NCBI GenBank assembly: GCA_013327885.1
Contig: JABUMY010000011.1
Location: 124,001-188,000 of the forward strand
Source of the DNA: Flavisolibacter longurius
Lineage (GTDB): Bacteria > Bacteroidota > Bacteroidia > Chitinophagales > Chitinophagaceae
Reading direction: 5' to 3'
Length of the DNA stretch: 64,000 bases
In this document: piece by piece, positions 2,722 through 46,710 of the stretch
Numbering within the stretch: position 1 is the stretch's first letter
Layout: each line of letters begins with the position of its first letter
Made by a program: the position numbers and the translations under genes
The notes under the pieces: generated by a model
What the model was told of the DNA's origin: nothing
Database searches by the model: none
Seen by the model: the letters and a program-made list of their open reading frames with translations, nothing else

Positions 2722-3615
2722 TTACGTTTGCACTTTGCTTTTTTGATTGACAAGAAACACGCCGGCAAAAATGAGCACAGCCGATACTATCTTTTGCCAG
2801 GTAACAGTTTCGCCCAGGGCAAAAAGGGCGATGCCAACAGCAAATACCGGTTGCGTATAAATATAGCTGCCCGTAACAGAGGCACCAAGTTTGGCAATGC
2901 CAAAGATGTTTAAATAATACGCCAGGAAGGTACCTGCAATGCCCACATACAACAGGGCCAGCACCTGCAGCCAACTGATGCTGCTCCAGGGAATGGCTGC
3001 GGTCTGCTGCCAGCAAAACGGCAGCATTAAAAAAAAGCCGATGGTAAAGATCCACCGGATCACATGCAGCGCCGAATAGCGTTCCATTAGTGGCTTTACC
3101 AAAATAAAATACAGCGAATACGAAATGGCGTTGATGATGATCAGCAGGTCGCCCAGCAAATAATTGGTGGCATGCTGCCCCGCTTCCCGTTGCAGGATAA
3201 GAAACACTGCTCCGCCAATGCCCAGCGAAAGACCGGCAGCTTTGTAAAGCGTAAAGTGTTCTTTCAGCACCCAAAGGGCAAACAGCGTCACTACAATTGG
3301 TGTGATCAGTGTTAGCAGCGCCGCATGTACGGTGGAAGTCAGTGTCAGTCCTTTAATGAACAGCATTTGGTTGACGGCAATACCGGTAACGGCACAGGCA
3401 AAAAACCGTCCCCAGTGGCGGCGTTCAATACCTGCCGCTGTTTTGCCAAAAGCCCAAACAGTCCAGAACAACACAAGGCTGATGGCCACCCTTGTGAGGT
3501 TGATGGCAAAGGGACCGATCGGTTTGGGAGAGATAAGCTTGACAAGACTGTAATTGCCGGCAAAAAATAAATTGGTCAGGAGTACGGCCAGGTGTGCTTT
3601 GGTGGTTTCTTTCAT
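2722..3615 (-). CDS. EamA/DMT family transporter
   Basis: Inner-membrane drug/metabolite transporter superfamily protein, 297 aa, with two tandem EamA domains and about ten hydrophobic helices. Typical features seen: PIGPFAINLTRVAISLVLF in helix 2, NQMLFIKGLTLTSTVHAALL in the first repeat and GTFLAYYLNIFGIAKLGAS in the second, ending with a conserved glutamate-containing loop LGETVTWQKIVSAVLIFAGV. These carriers export metabolites or amino acids; the substrate cannot be told. Transcribed alone, convergent to the SixA-like gene. Confidence 0.9.
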   Translation of the reverse strand: MKETTKAHLAVLLTNLFFAGNYSLVKLISPKPIGPFAINLTRVAISLVLFWTVWAFGKTAAGIERRHWGRFFACAVTGIAVNQMLFIKGLTLTSTVHAALLTLITPIVVTLFALWVLKEHFTLYKAAGLSLGIGGAVFLILQREAGQHATNYLLGDLLIIINAISYSLYFILVKPLMERYSALHVIRWIFTIGFFLMLPFCWQQTAAIPWSSISWLQVLALLYVGIAGTFLAYYLNIFGIAKLGASVTGSYIYTQPVFAVGIALFALGETVTWQKIVSAVLIFAGVFLVNQKSKVQT

Positions 3616-12640: not shown

Positions 12641-12673
12641 CACCTAAGTTCCCCCACCGGGGGACAGGGGGCC
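12641..12673 (-). repeat. 33-bp dispersed hairpin repeat, copy B
   Basis: Reverse-complement copy of the unit at 11901-11933, identical over 33 bases. It forms the 3' end of the minus-strand hydroxyacyl-CoA dehydrogenase gene: read in frame it encodes GPLSPGGGT and its ACTTAG supplies the stop codon (12644-12646). The core can fold as CCCCC/GGGGG with a GGT loop. No run of T follows, so it is not a classical terminator. Confidence 0.93.
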
Positions 12674-13510
12674 GTAATACCCCTTCCCTGTTTTTTTTCC
12701 CAGTTCGCCTTTCTCCACTTTTTCTTTTTGGATGTAAGAGGGCATCAGGCGTTCGGGTCTGCCGAGTTGTTCGTACACCGAACAACTCACGGCATAGTTG
12801 ACATCATTGCCAATAAGATCCATCAGCTTGAACGGGCCCATTTTAAAGCCAATGCCTTCCAGCAGGCGATCCATCACGTCAAAGGAAGCATAGCCTTCTT
12901 CTGCCAGTCGCAACGACTCGATGTAATAGGGCCTTGCCACGCGGTTAACGATAAAGCCGGGTGAATCGTTGCAAACCACCGGTACCTTGCCCACGGCTTT
13001 GGTAAAGGCAATCAACTGCGTGATGACCGCATTGCTTGTTTGTTCTCCCTTCACCACTTCCACCAATTTCATCAGCGGCGCGGGGTTAAAGAAATGCAGG
13101 CCGGCAACTCTTTCGGGGTGGGGCAAACCGGTTGCGATCTGTGTGATGGAAAGAGAAGAGGTATTGGAAGCAAAAATGGTTTCTTTGGCATTGATGGCTG
13201 CCAGTTGTTGAAACAGCGAGAGCTTGGCCTCCGGTTTTTCTACAATGGCCTCTATCACAAGATTGGCTATGCATTGCTGCAGGTCGGTAACAAATTGGAG
13301 GTTGCTTATGGTTTCATCGGCTTTCTGCTGCGTGATCTTTTCTTTTTCCACCAGCCGGGCCAGGTCCTTCTTTAGCTTTTGCGCGGCTCCCTGCACGGCC
13401 GTTTCCGACACGTCGAAAAGCAGGGTGTGAAAGCCCGCCGCCGCCGAAACCTGCGCAATGCCGCTGCCCATGGTACCGGCTCCGCAAATACAAATGGTTG
13501 TTGTTTGCAT
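12644..13510 (-). CDS. 3-hydroxyacyl-CoA (3-hydroxybutyryl-CoA) dehydrogenase
   Basis: A 288-aa NAD-dependent dehydrogenase that oxidises L-3-hydroxyacyl-CoA in fatty-acid or butyrate metabolism. Rossmann motif CGAGTMGSGIAQ at the N-terminus, catalytic HFFNPAPLMKLVEVV with the His and Asn, and NDSPGFIVNRV of the C-terminal domain are intact. The ATG at 13510 is chosen because the dinucleotide fold begins five residues later. The normal C-terminus (GKKTGKGYY) runs straight into repeat-encoded GPLSPGGGT and the repeat's TAG, so the natural end of the protein has been replaced or extended by the repeat. Confidence 0.94.
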   Translation of the reverse strand: MQTTTICICGAGTMGSGIAQVSAAAGFHTLLFDVSETAVQGAAQKLKKDLARLVEKEKITQQKADETISNLQFVTDLQQCIANLVIEAIVEKPEAKLSLFQQLAAINAKETIFASNTSSLSITQIATGLPHPERVAGLHFFNPAPLMKLVEVVKGEQTSNAVITQLIAFTKAVGKVPVVCNDSPGFIVNRVARPYYIESLRLAEEGYASFDVMDRLLEGIGFKMGPFKLMDLIGNDVNYAVSCSVYEQLGRPERLMPSYIQKEKVEKGELGKKTGKGYYGPLSPGGGT

Positions 13511-13573
13511 GATGGGTGTAAATGTACATTGGTAATGAAAACAACCTATCTTAATAGTTTCAAAGTCATTGTT

Positions 13574-14284
13574 ATGGCCACTACCAACACAACGGATATT
13601 TACCGCAAGCCTTACCTCCCTACCGCCCTTTATGCGCTTGCCCTGCTGCTGTTTTTGCTTCCTTTTTTCGATATCAAGTGCAACAACATGTCCATGGCAA
13701 AGCTTAGTGGCATTAGCATGGCCACGGGTGGCAAGCCCAGTTTGAGCAGCGAGATGACGGATATGCAAAACAGCTTTCCTGGTGAGCGGCGCCGTTCGGC
13801 TTCCTCGTTTGAAGGAGAAGGACAGTTGTTTGTGACAGCTTTGTTTGCCCTGTTGCTGGGTGTGGCCGGGTTGCTTTATTCGCTCCTGAATAAAGGCGAC
13901 AACCAGCGGCCGGCCGTGTATATTGGTGCCTTGGGTGCACTGGCCCTTATCGGGTCGTGGATACAGGTAAATTCATTTGTAAGTGAGAACAGTCGAACAC
14001 AGGGCGTGCAAATGCCCGATAACCAGTTTTCGGCCATGATGAAAGTATCGGCTTCGCCAACGTTTTGGTTTGTGTTTTGCCTGCTTTGCTTTCTCGCGGC
14101 CGCCTTTATCAGTTATCAAAAAAGCAAGCCTGCGGTTGCCGCAACTGCCCCTTCTGCTGCAGGTGCATCTACAGCAACGGTTGACGAAAAGCCGCCGCAG
14201 GCAGCCCCGCAAATACCTATCAAAAACCCCGGCGATCAGTCGGAGTTTCCGTCGGCACCTGACGGCGAAAGAGACCTGGGTTAA
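13574..14284 (+). CDS. Hypothetical membrane protein, 236 aa
   Basis: Integral membrane protein of unknown function with about four hydrophobic segments (residues ~16-33, 90-108, 121-137 and 167-184) and a soluble loop containing SGISMATGG and SFEGEGQ between the first two. The C-terminal 45 residues are rich in Ala, Pro and Lys and look disordered. The ATG at 13574 gives a proper N-terminal in-leader (TDIYRKPYLPTALYA); another ATG at 13535 is possible. Divergent from the dehydrogenase gene by 63 bases and followed by a good terminator at 14393. Confidence 0.8.
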   Translation: MATTNTTDIYRKPYLPTALYALALLLFLLPFFDIKCNNMSMAKLSGISMATGGKPSLSSEMTDMQNSFPGERRRSASSFEGEGQLFVTALFALLLGVAGLLYSLLNKGDNQRPAVYIGALGALALIGSWIQVNSFVSENSRTQGVQMPDNQFSAMMKVSASPTFWFVFCLLCFLAAAFISYQKSKPAVAATAPSAAGASTATVDEKPPQAAPQIPIKNPGDQSEFPSAPDGERDLG

Positions 14285-41599: not shown

Positions 41600-42190
41600 A
41601 TGAAACTGGAAGAGGTACTGCAACAGCGAAGCGGCGGCAAATGTGAACTCTGCGGCGCTACAGAAGGAGTCCAACCTTACGAGGTGCAGCCACAAGATTC
41701 CCGCAACGAAGAAAATACGGTTCTGCTTTGTGCCAAATGCCGGGCACAGGTAGAGAAGAGGGAAGAACTGGATAACGAACATTGGCGCAAAGCCCTGCCC
41801 GAAAGCATGTGGAGCGAAGTGCCGGGTGTGCAGGTAACGGCTTGGCGTATGCTGAACCGCCTGCGCAACGAAAGCTGGGCTGCTGACAGCCTGGACATGC
41901 TGTACTTGGATGAGGAAAAACTAGCCTGGGCCAAAGCCACCGGCGATCATGAAAGTGACGGCAGCGTTGATTTGCACAAAGACTGCAACGGCGCCGTGCT
42001 GCAATCTGGCGATACAGTGGTTCTCACCAAATCGCTGGATGTAAAAGGCTCAACGCTGAATGCAAAAATGGGAACCGTTGTAAAGAACATTCGCCTGGTA
42101 GAAAACAATACGGAACAAATTGAAGGCCGCATCGAAGGGCAGGTAATCGTGATTCTGACCAAATATGTACGAAAGCAAAATAACGGATAA
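41600..42190 (+). CDS. PhnA-domain protein (YjdM-like)
   Basis: A 196-aa zinc-ribbon plus PhnA-domain protein. The N-terminal zinc ribbon has CELCGATEG and LLCAKC; the C-terminal PhnA domain (about 125-196) has LHKDCNGAVLQSGDTVVLTK and VKGSTLNAKMGTVVKNI, ending in GQVIVILTKYVRKQ. Despite the name, this family's role is not established. It is intact and followed by its own terminator. A second, diverged copy of its last 16 codons occurs at 45234-45281 (see findings). Confidence 0.93.
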   Translation: MKLEEVLQQRSGGKCELCGATEGVQPYEVQPQDSRNEENTVLLCAKCRAQVEKREELDNEHWRKALPESMWSEVPGVQVTAWRMLNRLRNESWAADSLDMLYLDEEKLAWAKATGDHESDGSVDLHKDCNGAVLQSGDTVVLTKSLDVKGSTLNAKMGTVVKNIRLVENNTEQIEGRIEGQVIVILTKYVRKQNNG

Positions 42191-42220
42191 AAATAAACGG
42201 ATAAGAATAGTTGTAAAAAG

Positions 42221-42250
42221 AAAAGCCGCTTCGCAGGCGAAGCGGCTTTT
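42221..42250 (+). terminator. Intrinsic terminator of phnA
   Basis: Perfect 13-bp stem AAAAGCCGCTTCG/CGAAGCGGCTTTT with loop CAGG. Confidence 0.92.
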
Positions 42251-42444
42251 TGATGCAAAATAGGTTTGGTCTGCGAGATAGTAGTGCTGTGTTGTTGCTG
42301 GAAAAGCTGTTGCAAGCAGTCCAGTTCTCTTCACTCAAAAGATGCGAAAGAAAAACTGCTGTATTTTCTTTCGCAAATAGCATTATATTCTGCCTACATT
42401 CGTGTCGAGCATATTCGTTACACCCTTGCACAAGCCATACTTTT

Positions 42445-42954
42445 ATGAAATACATCATCCTGCTTACTACGTTTCTTTCTTGTTTTTATGGGTGCATTCG
42501 TCCTTGCATAGAGCCAAGAGGCATAGAGGGAGCGGGTCTGACTATCAAGTTCTTTCACACTGCAAACGACCAGTATTTTTATACCGAAAACCCTAATCTT
42601 TCTCCTTTTCGGCTGGACAGTCTTAAAATTTTGGACTCCCGTGGCAAACTGTTAAACACTCCCACAGGCATTGATCAGGATCATAGAAACCCTTTACGAA
42701 AGATTTATACAGTCGGTATATATCCCATCTTCATTCCAAGCGATGACGAAGAAGCTTTCAACAGCGAGCAAAGCAAATGGATTTACATTTATTATAACCG
42801 CACTACGTCCGATACCTTGAAACTGGTGTACAAGGCAAGAAAAGAAAAGTGCGCCAATAAGTATGAGTACCTGAAAGCCTACCACCGGGAACAGTTGGTT
42901 GGAGAAATATACAACAGCTACCACGAGAATCTTGAGTTTACACTAAACCACTGA
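42445..42954 (+). CDS. Hypothetical lipoprotein (169 aa)
   Basis: Small exported protein of unknown function. The signal peptide has a lipobox at FYGC (Cys near residue 17), with another Cys four residues later. The mature part is rich in Tyr, Asn and Lys (YFYTENPNLSPFRLDSLK, KWIYIYYNRTTSD, YEYLKAYHREQLVGEIY), with no recognised domain. Codons look AT-richer than the neighbours. It lies five bases before the metalloprotease start, so they form one unit inside the inserted block. Confidence 0.78.
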   Translation: MKYIILLTTFLSCFYGCIRPCIEPRGIEGAGLTIKFFHTANDQYFYTENPNLSPFRLDSLKILDSRGKLLNTPTGIDQDHRNPLRKIYTVGIYPIFIPSDDEEAFNSEQSKWIYIYYNRTTSDTLKLVYKARKEKCANKYEYLKAYHREQLVGEIYNSYHENLEFTLNH

Positions 42955-42959
42955 CTCAT

Positions 42960-45192
42960 ATGCAAAAGCATCTGCTTATCATCATGCTGTTCGCAGCATC
43001 GTACACCCATGCCCAAACTACTACCAGAGGACACTGTGAAACGCCTGAAATGGATACAGCGGAATTTCAAAATCTTCCTTGGTATGGTAACAAACGACAT
43101 GCTCGAAACCTTTTTGGACAGCATTGGCTATCCATCAGAGGTGAGCACAAATCGCATCATTGGACGGCCTCAGGTGAGGTATTGGATTCCTATTAAATTT
43201 TGGATTTACCGTGACGATAACGGTAATGGTGGACCTACACCTGTACAGATTCAAAGATTGATGGACGATTTGAACTTTCGGTTCAATCAGAATAACAACA
43301 CCATGATCGGGTTTTATCAAAAGTGCGAACCATCGTTTATTAATAACTCCACACATACTGAAAAAACAACCGTAGGTGCTGCCATTTTGATGGCAGATAA
43401 TAATGATCATGGAAGTATTAACGTGCACATTATTGAAAGATTTGCTTCTGGCGGCGCAGGTCTGGCTGTTCCGCTTGTTAACGGCGCAATGGTTCCTCGC
43501 GGAAGCTATTCCGACCCTGAGGCAAGCGGTGATTTAGCCCACGAGATCGGGCATGTTTTGGGTCTTTCACATACTCATCAATACAGTGCCTGGAATTGGG
43601 GATGCCTTACCGAAAGTGTGAGCCGCACAAGGACCTGGCCTACTTTCAATTTTTGCCCAACAAGGTTTGTATCGGGAAACGTTTCAGAGGCGACCGGTGA
43701 TGCGCTACGGGACACACCTGCTGATAACAACCTGGTCAGCAATAATGCTTGTTTTTATAATGTAACATCTGGCACCGATCCATGGGGTGATTCTTACGAC
43801 AATCCACCGGCAGGTTTTCAAGACCGGGCGAATGTTAGAAATATTATGAGCTATAATTCTGCAACAGATTGTGTTGATCAGTTTTCCAGATTGCAGATAG
43901 CAGTTATGTTGCGAACAATCATCTGGAGAAAAACTAATAATGTGAGCGGATGGAAAAACCCGATAAGTACTTTCGATTCATTTGAGGCGGACAACCAGCC
44001 AGAAACAGCCAGGGAGATTCAATTGAATCAAGTACAAGAGCGAAACTTTCATCAGCAGTGGAACAGAACTGGTGGGTTTGGCTATACAACACAATGCGAT
44101 GTGGATTGGGTGCGTTTTGTAGCGCCTTGTAACGGTTCTTTTACAGTGTTTACTTCTTCGATGCCAGGCATGGCCTTTGCCAATACCCGCTTAACACTAT
44201 TTAATAATAATTTGGTTCAATTAGCTCAAAACGACGACATTTCTTCTACAAACAATTTCTCGAGTATTCAATTCAACTTTGTTTCGGGGAACGAATATTT
44301 TATTCGCATTGAAAATATGAGTATTTCAACAACTGGATACTACACTTTACAGATCAGCAGTATGCTTTCAGTTGCAGGGGACGATAACTTTTGTGCAACT
44401 TCAAACAACTTTACAGTAACTAATCTGCCATTAGGCGCTACGGTACAATGGCAGGTTACTCCGTTAGGAATTATAACTATCAACTCGCCTAATTCAACGC
44501 AAACAACACTAACGCGAAATGGCAATGGAATGGTCATGCTAACTGCTACCGTTTCAAATATATGCGGTGGGCCTGTCACCATAAGCAAAACTATTGCAGT
44601 AGGTGTGCCGGACCGGCCGAAGGTGTTTGATGAAAACGGGCAAGCGATAACAACCATTTCAGCATGCACCAATGTGTATGAATCGCTATGTCCAACCATT
44701 GATTCGAGATGGGGTGTCCTGGAATGGGAATGGGAAAGGGTAATAGGCAATTTTAATTTGATAGACTTTAACAGTTGTGCCGACGTTTTGGGCTTTCAGC
44801 CTGGCTCCGGCTTTATCAGTGTCAGAGTGCGCAATGCATGTGGTTGGAGCAATCCTACATTCATTGTAGCCAACATAGCAGATTGCAGTAGTATGACCAT
44901 ACAACAAAAATCAATCAATCTATTTCCTAATCCGGCTAGTAGTTCTGTTACTCTTTCTGTTAATGGACAAACGAGTCTTCACTCCAAAACAAAAGGAGAG
45001 CAACACTCTGATGACGTGAGCATTAATGAGGTGAAAATTTACGACAGCTTCAGTAATGTAAAACTATACCGGAAGTATAACAGGCAACATTCTGCCACCA
45101 TAGATGTATCAACCTTGCCGAAAGGTGTTTACATAGTAGAAATAAATACTGGCAGTAGACTTGAGTATCAACAATTAATGACTCAAAAATAA
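42960..45192 (+). CDS. Secreted M43-type metalloprotease with T9SS sorting domain, frameshifted near the start
   Basis: Pappalysin/cytophagalysin-type zinc protease. A clean signal peptide (MQKHLLIIMLFAASYTHAQ) and PEMDTAEFQNLPWYGN lie in the frame from 42960, but the main frame (43009-45192, 727 aa) is one base shifted; joining them needs an extra base near 43092 (AACAAACGAC) to be skipped. The catalytic core has AHEIGHVLGLSHTH (HExxHxxGxxH) and IMSYNS (Met-turn), then a PPC-type beta domain (WVRFVAPCNGSFTV), an Ig-like region and a C-terminal type A sorting domain (NLFPNPASSSVTLS, GVYIVEIN). Read without frameshift, it would have no signal peptide and could not be secreted. The gene may be broken, or the shift may be a sequencing error or programmed event. 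Confidence 0.85.
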
Positions 45193-45230
45193 CATTTGCC
45201 AGACCAGTAACTACATAGGAACGATATAAC

Positions 45231-45299
45231 CAAGGGCAGGTGATCGTGATCCTGACGAAGTATGTGCGAAAGCAAAATAATGAACAGGCACAAACGTAA
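45231..45299 (+). pseudogene. Truncated second phnA 3' end
   Basis: Encodes QGQVIVILTKYVRKQNN followed by EQAQT and a TAA stop, in the frame of a PhnA C-terminus. Codons 45234-45281 match 42137-42184 of phnA with six changes, all synonymous; nothing of phnA lies upstream. It therefore is the tail of a diverged phnA whose front has been lost, and it ends directly in its own terminator. Confidence 0.85.
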
Positions 45300-45327
45300 A
45301 AAGCCGGTACAATGGTACCGGCTTTTT
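45298..45327. terminator. Terminator after the phnA remnant
   Basis: Perfect 13-bp stem AAAAAGCCGGTAC/GTACCGGCTTTTT with loop AATG, similar in build to the phnA terminator at 42221-42250. Lies between convergent genes. Confidence 0.92.
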
Positions 45328-45390
45328 ATTTTAAAACGATTTATACTTCGCCTTTGCTCACAACTCACGGCTCAAAGCTCGCAGCTTCTC

Positions 45391-46710
45391 TCACACTGCA
45401 TCCGACAGCGAGCTAAAATTAAACCCGTTGATGCGCATGGGCGGCACCATGCTGTTTTGAATGCGTACCGGTTTGCCCACCGCTTCCAGGTTGACCAGCA
45501 TGTTTGCCGGGCTTTCGTTAAAGCGGAAGTTTTTAATGGCGTGCTGTACGGCGCCGTCTTTGATCAAAAATGTGCCATCGCGGGTAAGACCGGTAAATAC
45601 CAGGGTTTGCGGGTCCACTAAGCGGATGTAATAAAACCGCGTAACCAAAACACCGTTGCTGGTGCCTTTGATCAGGTCTTCCAGCGACTGATCGGTGCCC
45701 TGCATGATAAAACCGCTGGGTGGTGGCGGCGCATCCGTTACTTCTTTTTGCTTGGCCCAGAAGCGGGTGTAGGGCAGGGCCTTCAATACACCGTTTTCTA
45801 CCCAGTTTACTTTCGCCTGCGGGCGGCCATCAAACGCAAAGGGATTTGAAGGATTCTCTGTGCTGAACGGATCGGAAAGGATCGTCACCTTATCGTTGAA
45901 CAATTGGCTGCCGATGCGATTGCCGCCACCACGCTTGCCAAAAAAGTTGCGGCCTTCATCGGCGCCGCGGGCATCCATTGCATTCAAGAGAAGGGAGATC
46001 AGATCATATGCCGCCTGTGGCTCCAGCACCACGGTCATTTTTTCGGGCTTTAATTCTTTTGCATCCTTCGAAGCAATAGCTTTTTTGATGGCGATTTCCG
46101 TTGCGCTTTTGGTATCGAGGCTGGCCGCATCGGTAAAATAACTCACGCCATAACCCGAACCTTTTTCATCGGCCGTTCTGGCCGTTACCGTAAACTCACC
46201 ACCCGTAGCCCGGTTGTAGCCAAACAAACCTTTGTTATTGCCAATGGCCACAAAGCCTGCGGTATCTTCCAGGTAACCCGCTGCGGTGGTTTTCGTGGCG
46301 ATACAAGCCTGTATGCTGGCCAGCGCCGCATCTACCCGGAATAAAGGATCAATCTTTGCCGAAGCCTCGGAAAAATTTAATCCTTTTTGGTATTGCTGCG
46401 GTCCGAGTACCGGCATATACTCGGGATTTTCGGGTGCCAGGCGGGCCACTTCTTCCGAACGACGAACGGTTTTTTCCAGCGTGGCGTCATCAAACTCATT
46501 TCCCGTAGCCGTGCCGGCCCGCTTGCCAAAAACAGAGGTAATGGAATAGGAAAGATTATCGGTTTCGCCGTTGGTAGAAACCGTGTTGCGGGCATAGCGG
46601 ATATTGCCCGTGCGGCCACCGCTCAGCGTAACACTGATCTCGTCGGCCTTTGAATACGAAATTATTTTATCAATCAGTTTTTTTGCTTCTTGTTCAGATA
46701 AGATTGCCAT
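45391..46710 (-). CDS. TldE/PmbA-like metalloprotease subunit
   Basis: A 439-aa TldD/PmbA family protein lacking the HExxxH motif, so it is the TldE-type partner. In E. coli TldD and TldE form a heterodimeric protease that matures microcins and degrades unfolded peptides. Features seen: GGRTGNIRYARNTVSTNGE at the N-terminus, LSDPFSTENPSNPFAFDG and the C-terminal VTRFYYIRLVDPQTLVFTGLT. It follows the TldD-type gene after 9 bases on the same strand. The low-complexity word TTTATACTTCGCC region and the phnA remnant lie just beyond. Confidence 0.93.
   Translation of the reverse strand: MAILSEQEAKKLIDKIISYSKADEISVTLSGGRTGNIRYARNTVSTNGETDNLSYSITSVFGKRAGTATGNEFDDATLEKTVRRSEEVARLAPENPEYMPVLGPQQYQKGLNFSEASAKIDPLFRVDAALASIQACIATKTTAAGYLEDTAGFVAIGNNKGLFGYNRATGGEFTVTARTADEKGSGYGVSYFTDAASLDTKSATEIAIKKAIASKDAKELKPEKMTVVLEPQAAYDLISLLLNAMDARGADEGRNFFGKRGGGNRIGSQLFNDKVTILSDPFSTENPSNPFAFDGRPQAKVNWVENGVLKALPYTRFWAKQKEVTDAPPPPSGFIMQGTDQSLEDLIKGTSNGVLVTRFYYIRLVDPQTLVFTGLTRDGTFLIKDGAVQHAIKNFRFNESPANMLVNLEAVGKPVRIQNSMVPPMRINGFNFSSLSDAV

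What the first reader, a model, noticed from the sequence alone, without database searches (positions are those of the whole stretch)
42137..45299. Diverged second phnA 3' end bracketing a 3.1-kb AT-richer block
The last 16 shared codons of intact phnA (42137-42184) recur at 45234-45281 with six base changes, every one at a synonymous third position, so both copies spent their history under protein-level selection. The second copy has no phnA sequence upstream and has its own terminator. Between them lie only a lipoprotein gene and a frameshifted secreted protease with visibly AT-richer codons. This looks like insertion or recombination at the phnA 3' end that brought in a donor phnA end, the way integrative elements restore target gene ends, but without an integrase.
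Basis: partly seen in the sequence, partly recalled or inferred. Interest (0 to 1): 0.72.

Follow-up and report, generated by a model that had tools for sequence, protein, structure and literature searches.

The report
Inserted cassette displaced a gene's end
A two-gene block (a lipoprotein and a broken secreted protease) was inserted at the end of the phnA gene in a soil-type bacterium, bringing a foreign version of that gene's end and leaving the original end stranded behind it; the same gene pair carries the same kind of scar in another genus.

Summary
In detail: phnA's last 16 shared codons (42137-42184) recur at 45234-45281 with six differences, all synonymous. The nearest relative found, Flavisolibacter longurius, has an empty site: phnA - terminator - tldE. 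Its flank matches the flank of the second copy, not that of the first. So the second copy is most likely phnA's original end, left behind; the end now on phnA, its terminator, a lipoprotein gene and a frameshifted metalloprotease are the newcomers. The two ends differ about as much as orthologues of these two species, as if each had been a working phnA end in a different lineage. The lipoprotein-protease pair is rare (full-length protease in 3 of 394 family genomes). In genome G198, another genus, it sits between a DUF6029 gene and a convergent gene, and the DUF6029 gene's native end again lies stranded beyond it; congener G124 has the empty junction. I recognised no integrase in the block, and 0 of 110 phnA loci held a second phnA end. 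I favour one-sided, homology-anchored recombination with a congener's DNA; a site-specific element without its own recombinase remains open. New variant of a known kind.

The parts
41600..42190 (+). phnA (PhnA/YjdM family), intact, with the incoming 3' end
   Evidence: PF03831 E 3.9e-25; 92% amino-acid identity to F. longurius
42135..42184 (+). copy 1 of the phnA end, inferred to be the newcomer (the left limit of the exchanged stretch is unknown)
   Evidence: its downstream flank does not match F. longurius beyond chance level (35 of 1000 shuffles as high)
42221..42251 (+). terminator-like hairpin behind copy 1
   Evidence: fold z -4.2, 0 of 200 shuffles as stable
42445..42954 (+). lipoprotein gene, no known family
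   Evidence: no Pfam, PHROG or NCBIfam match; homologues in G198 and G075; lipoprotein by my reading of the N-terminus
42960..43196 (+). reading frame with the signal-peptide part of the protease (broken from the body by a frameshift)
   Evidence: intact homologues
43009..45192 (+). reading frame with the body of the metalloprotease: HExxHxxxxxH motif, pre-peptidase C-terminal domain, T9SS sorting tail
   Evidence: Peptidase_M43 22.4 bits, just under its cut-off of 23
45232..45281 (+). copy 2 of the phnA end, inferred to be the stranded native end (its frame runs on to a stop at 45297-45299)
45303..45332 (+). native phnA terminator
   Evidence: aligns with the F. longurius terminator; copy-2 flank score 46, 0 of 1000 shuffles as high
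45391..46710 (-). tldE, convergent neighbour, in the same place in F. longurius
   Evidence: 94.5% amino-acid identity

Best explanation
A 3-kb stretch of DNA from a related species, holding a phnA end, its terminator, a lipoprotein gene and a secreted-protease gene, recombined into the gap between phnA and tldE. On the left it joined by homology within or upstream of phnA, so phnA received the donor's end. On the right it joined without evident homology about 50 bases before the recipient's own phnA stop, which left the native end and terminator stranded. Shown: the two diverged ends, the empty site in one relative, the native flank of copy 2, the different composition, and the same scar around the same gene pair in another genus. 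Inferred: the donor, the left crossover and the one-sided (homology-facilitated illegitimate) route. The mirror image (copy 1 resident, and a block-free allele with copy 2 and tldE re-entering from the right) gives the same sequence. The role of the pair, a secreted protease with a partner or protective lipoprotein, is inference only.
For: Empty site in F. longurius; copy-2 flank matches it (0 of 1000 shuffles) and copy-1 flank does not beyond chance level (35 of 1000). Synonymous difference between the two ends 0.53 against a median of 0.55 (range 0.37-0.73) for 38 host-F. longurius orthologues, so the ends behave as alleles of two species. Block DNA found in 0 of the 17 other genus genomes searched. 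Same pair and same scar at an unrelated gene in G198, with an empty junction in G124. Family scans of the block's pieces show no recombinase.
Against: No donor found. Both right joints lie within 50 bases of the upstream gene's stop, which one-sided recombination does not predict. Polarity at phnA rests on one relative; loss of the block in F. longurius by recombination between the two ends is not formally excluded. The body of phnA shows no donor signature, so the left crossover is not located.
Confidence: 0.5

Rival explanations
1. A site-specific integrative element, or a CIME-like remnant of one without its own recombinase, used the phnA 3' end as attachment site. Its own attachment site carried a phnA-like end that restored the gene, and copy 2 is the displaced attachment half.
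For: The repeat is short, lies at a gene's 3' end, and restores the gene; CIMEs of 1.2-13 kb with cargo and no recombinase are described at gene 3' ends (PMC7563491, passages). Both readable sites of the pair have the joint within 50 bases of the stop. Tyrosine recombinases exist elsewhere in the host genome.
Against: No recombinase recognised in the block. 0 of 110 loci hold two phnA ends; 0 viral contigs. The two target ends (phnA, DUF6029) have no obvious common core. Identity of the two ends is only 42 of 48.
Confidence: 0.3
2. The block inserted in an ancestor by some transposition-like event that duplicated the gene end; copies then diverged, and transfer of the block between strains by ordinary homologous recombination refreshed copy 2.
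For: In G198 the two ends share 19 of 21 bases, closer than either is to G124 by my count. A related module in G254 inserted cleanly into recQ, so modules of this kind can insert by a precise route.
Against: Needs two steps; G254 shows at most one duplicated base, not a gene-end duplication.
Confidence: 0.12
3. The ancestor had two full phnA genes in tandem; the block replaced most of the second one, leaving its end.
For: It would also explain synonymous-only differences.
Against: No locus of 110 holds two phnA ends; the host has no other phnA match; it does not explain the matching scar at DUF6029 in G198.
Confidence: 0.05

Closest known systems
Homology-facilitated illegitimate recombination, proposed for displaced T6SS effector genes in Vibrio cholerae (PMC5361080, passages read) and measured in E. 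coli conjugation (PMC3240628, abstract read)
   Same: Incoming DNA anchors by homology on one side, joins illegitimately on the other, and leaves the 3' part of the resident gene stranded behind the new module.
   Different: There the displaced gene is the effector itself and a different one replaces it; here a housekeeping-type gene keeps its function through an equivalent end and unrelated cargo rides along. The route is not demonstrated here.
Cis-mobilizable elements (CIMEs), decayed ICE/IME remnants at gene 3' ends (PMC7563491, passages read)
   Same: Size, cargo without a recombinase, repeat at the 3' end of a gene that is restored.
   Different: No ICE, IME or sister element with this end was found; the two ends are only 42 of 48 identical.
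Genomic islands with restored target gene and displaced fragment, as catalogued by Islander (PMC4383910, abstract read)
   Same: Restored gene plus displaced fragment marks both limits of the insert.
   Different: Those are in tRNA/tmRNA genes and must encode an integrase; this is a protein gene and has none.
Phage 21 and e14 at the E. coli icd gene (recalled; one search gave a search listing only)
   Same: The incoming element supplies a diverged, mostly synonymous 3' end of a protein-coding gene.
   Different: Those carry an integrase and phage genes.

Membership tests
Site-specific integrative element | own site-specific recombinase | tested here: not met
   family scans of the block's protein pieces find none
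Site-specific integrative element | flanking repeat with target gene restored | tested here: met
   (phnA intact); identity 42 of 48
CIME | related ICE/IME using the same attachment site | tested here: not met
   0 of 110 loci hold two phnA ends; 0 viral contigs; only these collections and loci were looked at
CIME | mobilisation in cis by an incoming element | not testable with these tools
   needs an experiment
Homology-facilitated illegitimate recombination | homologous joint on one side | tested here: inconclusive
   phnA is homologous throughout, but no donor and no crossover could be located
Homology-facilitated illegitimate recombination | non-homologous joint on the other side | tested here: inconclusive
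   abrupt left edge of copy 2; the donor sequence before the joint is unknown
Integron gene cassette | integron integrase in the genome | tested here: not met
   TIGR02249 over its cut-off in 0 of 8 genomes; weaker matches in 8 of 8 and in 14 of 14 control genomes
Integron gene cassette | attC site on the cassette | tested here: inconclusive
   right border of the window block does not fold, left shows only the terminator; no dedicated attC model was available

The most novel reading that the evidence does not exclude
The lipoprotein plus T9SS-protease pair is a mobile cassette without its own recombinase. It settles repeatedly between convergent genes in Chitinophagaceae by exchanging the 3' end of whatever gene lies upstream, leaving the native end as a scar; its movement is specific to the cassette, not an accident of recombination.
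Probability: 0.2. Interest if true: 0.6.

Novelty: new variant of a known kind. Interest (0 to 1): 0.42.

Why it matters
Stranded gene ends are a readable record of how accessory genes enter a chromosome. Here two sites in two genera share the cargo and the scar but not the target gene, and no recombinase was recognised. That makes a direct test possible between accidental one-sided recombination and an unrecognised way of moving small secreted-protein modules in Bacteroidota.

Tried and rejected
Tandem duplication with decay: rejected on the empty site in F. longurius and the synonymous-only differences. Donor signature in the phnA body: the GC drop along phnA is also in F. longurius and phnA's synonymous divergence is close to the median; the rise along the gene rests on few sites. 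Low divergence of tldE and tldD as a sign of right-side replacement: low but within the range of 38 orthologues. Integron cassette idea, raised by a G/TT boundary in G254: not supported. G075 as a third site: its contig ends in a repeat and a 102-base foldback, so its borders are unreadable. A seeming recQ end duplication in G254: two congeners show a clean insertion instead. Borders of the two related copies in G237 were compared only with the other modules, not with an empty site. Rfam hits over the site are below gathering scores. In one search the F. longurius tail was cut out of frame, so its two tail comparisons with that species are void; the distances (6 and 8 of 48) replace them. Papers: the 8 listed of 75 papers held no mention of phnA; one search found 3 papers, none on such a module by title and abstract; these are two searches of an open-access library only. 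No structure was predicted.

Full report
The observation. The 16 codons at 42137-42184 and 45234-45281 encode the same peptide and differ at six third positions. The similarity is far above chance (score 73; 500 shuffles reach at most 31). Six random substitutions would leave the peptide unchanged with probability 1.35e-4. The left edge of the second copy is abrupt, each copy has its own terminator-like hairpin, and the block between is AT-richer than its neighbours.

The site in relatives. The phnA loci examined are the best 80 of 327 genome-collection matches plus loci from the genome search. Only F. longurius BT320 (L031, the same record as G006 contig C54) shares the host's neighbourhood; the few other matches to neighbour proteins are weak and scattered. 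In F. longurius phnA runs straight into its terminator and tldE. The 62 bases after copy 2 align with the F. longurius flank (score 46, 0 of 1000 shuffles as high). Those after copy 1 do not beyond chance level (score 15, 35 of 1000 as high). So copy 2 sits in the native place and copy 1 came with the block. The alternative, that F. longurius lost the block by recombination between the two ends, is not formally excluded, but copy 2 would then have been a long-standing relic and should have decayed. Block DNA was found in 0 of the 17 other genus genomes, some of them incomplete.

How far apart the ends are. Copy 1 and copy 2 differ at 0.53 of synonymous sites. Thirty-eight orthologues between host and F. 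longurius (best matches with at least 60% amino-acid identity) have a median of 0.55, range 0.37-0.73; phnA itself has 0.54. Against 93 other phnA ends, some from overlapping loci, copy 1 is nearest to F. longurius (6 of 48 bases); copy 2 is 8 from it and 7 from two others. The ends behave like alleles of two species. No nearer donor is in the collections searched.

The cargo. The lipoprotein matches no Pfam, PHROG or NCBIfam family. The second protein has a zinc-protease motif, a pre-peptidase C-terminal domain and a type IX secretion tail, and a match to Peptidase_M43 just below the cut-off. In the window it is split between two frames near its start. Homologues of both, side by side and in the same order, occur in G198 and G075. 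The protease profile matches 5 of 394 family genomes, three over its length and two at the C-terminal part only. The lipoprotein search matches 4 of 294 family genomes, one of them a piece at a contig edge; its profile matches 1 of 395 phylum genomes, the host, in a sample that did not bring up G198 or G075.

A second site with the same scar. In G198 the pair lies between a DUF6029 gene (PF19494) and a convergent gene that I read as metF. In congener G124 the two genes abut. G198's DUF6029 gene ends differently, and behind the protease, directly against the convergent gene, stands a second end in frame that matches the G124 junction (20 of 27 bases; 4 of 200,000 random pairs reach that). The alignment continues into the convergent gene. 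By score alone this repeat is at the background of the scan (90; control 99% quantile 87), so the case rests on its position and on the match to the empty junction. G323, another congener, has the same two genes with a longer gap and no module there.

How common it is. In 800 gene ends from 84 sequences the phnA case ties for first place (205); three others above 130 look like neighbouring paralogues, and control segments reach 165. In two whole contigs of the host (449 kb) and two other loci, 758 tests gave the phnA case, look-alike neighbours in L150, and gene ends made of a dispersed repeat; one control reached 210. Such scars are rare in this sample, yet the two sites of the pair that can be read both have one. 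That is the strongest hint that this cargo moves in a particular way, but the number is two. Against it, a related module in G254 (another partner gene, shared C-terminal part) inserted into recQ without such a scar, sharing at most one base at the junction.

Mechanism. One-sided homologous recombination with a congener's DNA explains the synonymous differences, the absence of a recognised recombinase and the unrelated targets. It does not explain why both right joints lie within 50 bases of the gene's stop. A site-specific element explains the joints but would need two specificities, with the recombinase absent from the block in the window, and no phnA-targeting relative was seen; recombinases elsewhere in the host could act in trans. 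I put about 0.5 on one-sided homologous capture and 0.3 on a site-specific element or its remnant. The topology itself (insertion, displaced native end) I hold at about 0.85.

Known kinds. Displacement of a resident gene by one-sided recombination was proposed for T6SS modules in Vibrio cholerae, including a shifted-back 3' end of an effector (PMC5361080, passages). The process was measured at low frequency in E. coli conjugation (PMC3240628, abstract). Restored target and displaced fragment define genomic islands (PMC4383910, abstract). CIMEs are recombinase-less remnants at gene 3' ends (PMC7563491, passages). This case resembles each in part and meets the full tested definition of none, hence a new variant of a known kind.

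Noticed in passing
L149:6920-9732 (G254): A related module (outer-membrane-barrel-like gene plus a T9SS-tail protein sharing its C-terminal part with the protease) interrupts recQ cleanly; G131 and G203 have recQ uninterrupted there, and at most one base is shared at the junction.
   Followed up: partly
window 12644-13768 (-) and elsewhere on host contig C2: Several unrelated reading frames end in the same peptide GPLSPGGGT, made by a dispersed G/C-rich repeat that supplies their last codons and stop.
   Followed up: no
L118:1-60 and 2976-3187 (G075); L131:884-999 (G227): The G075 contig with the gene pair starts and ends in a repeat related to GGGCAGAAGGAATA, also present twice in congener G227, and ends in a 102-base near-perfect foldback that may be an assembly artefact.
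   Followed up: partly
L150:8701-14445 (G237): Two neighbouring copies of the related barrel plus T9SS-tail module at a contig end.
   Followed up: no
G005 contig C89 near 144833-145020 (L025): Small fragments of a second phnA besides an intact one elsewhere in that genome, with a stop inside: a likely relic.
   Followed up: no
window 41600-42190: Apart from F. longurius, no phnA locus examined has the host's neighbours beside phnA, so phnA seems to change place often in this family (some loci are short).
   Followed up: no
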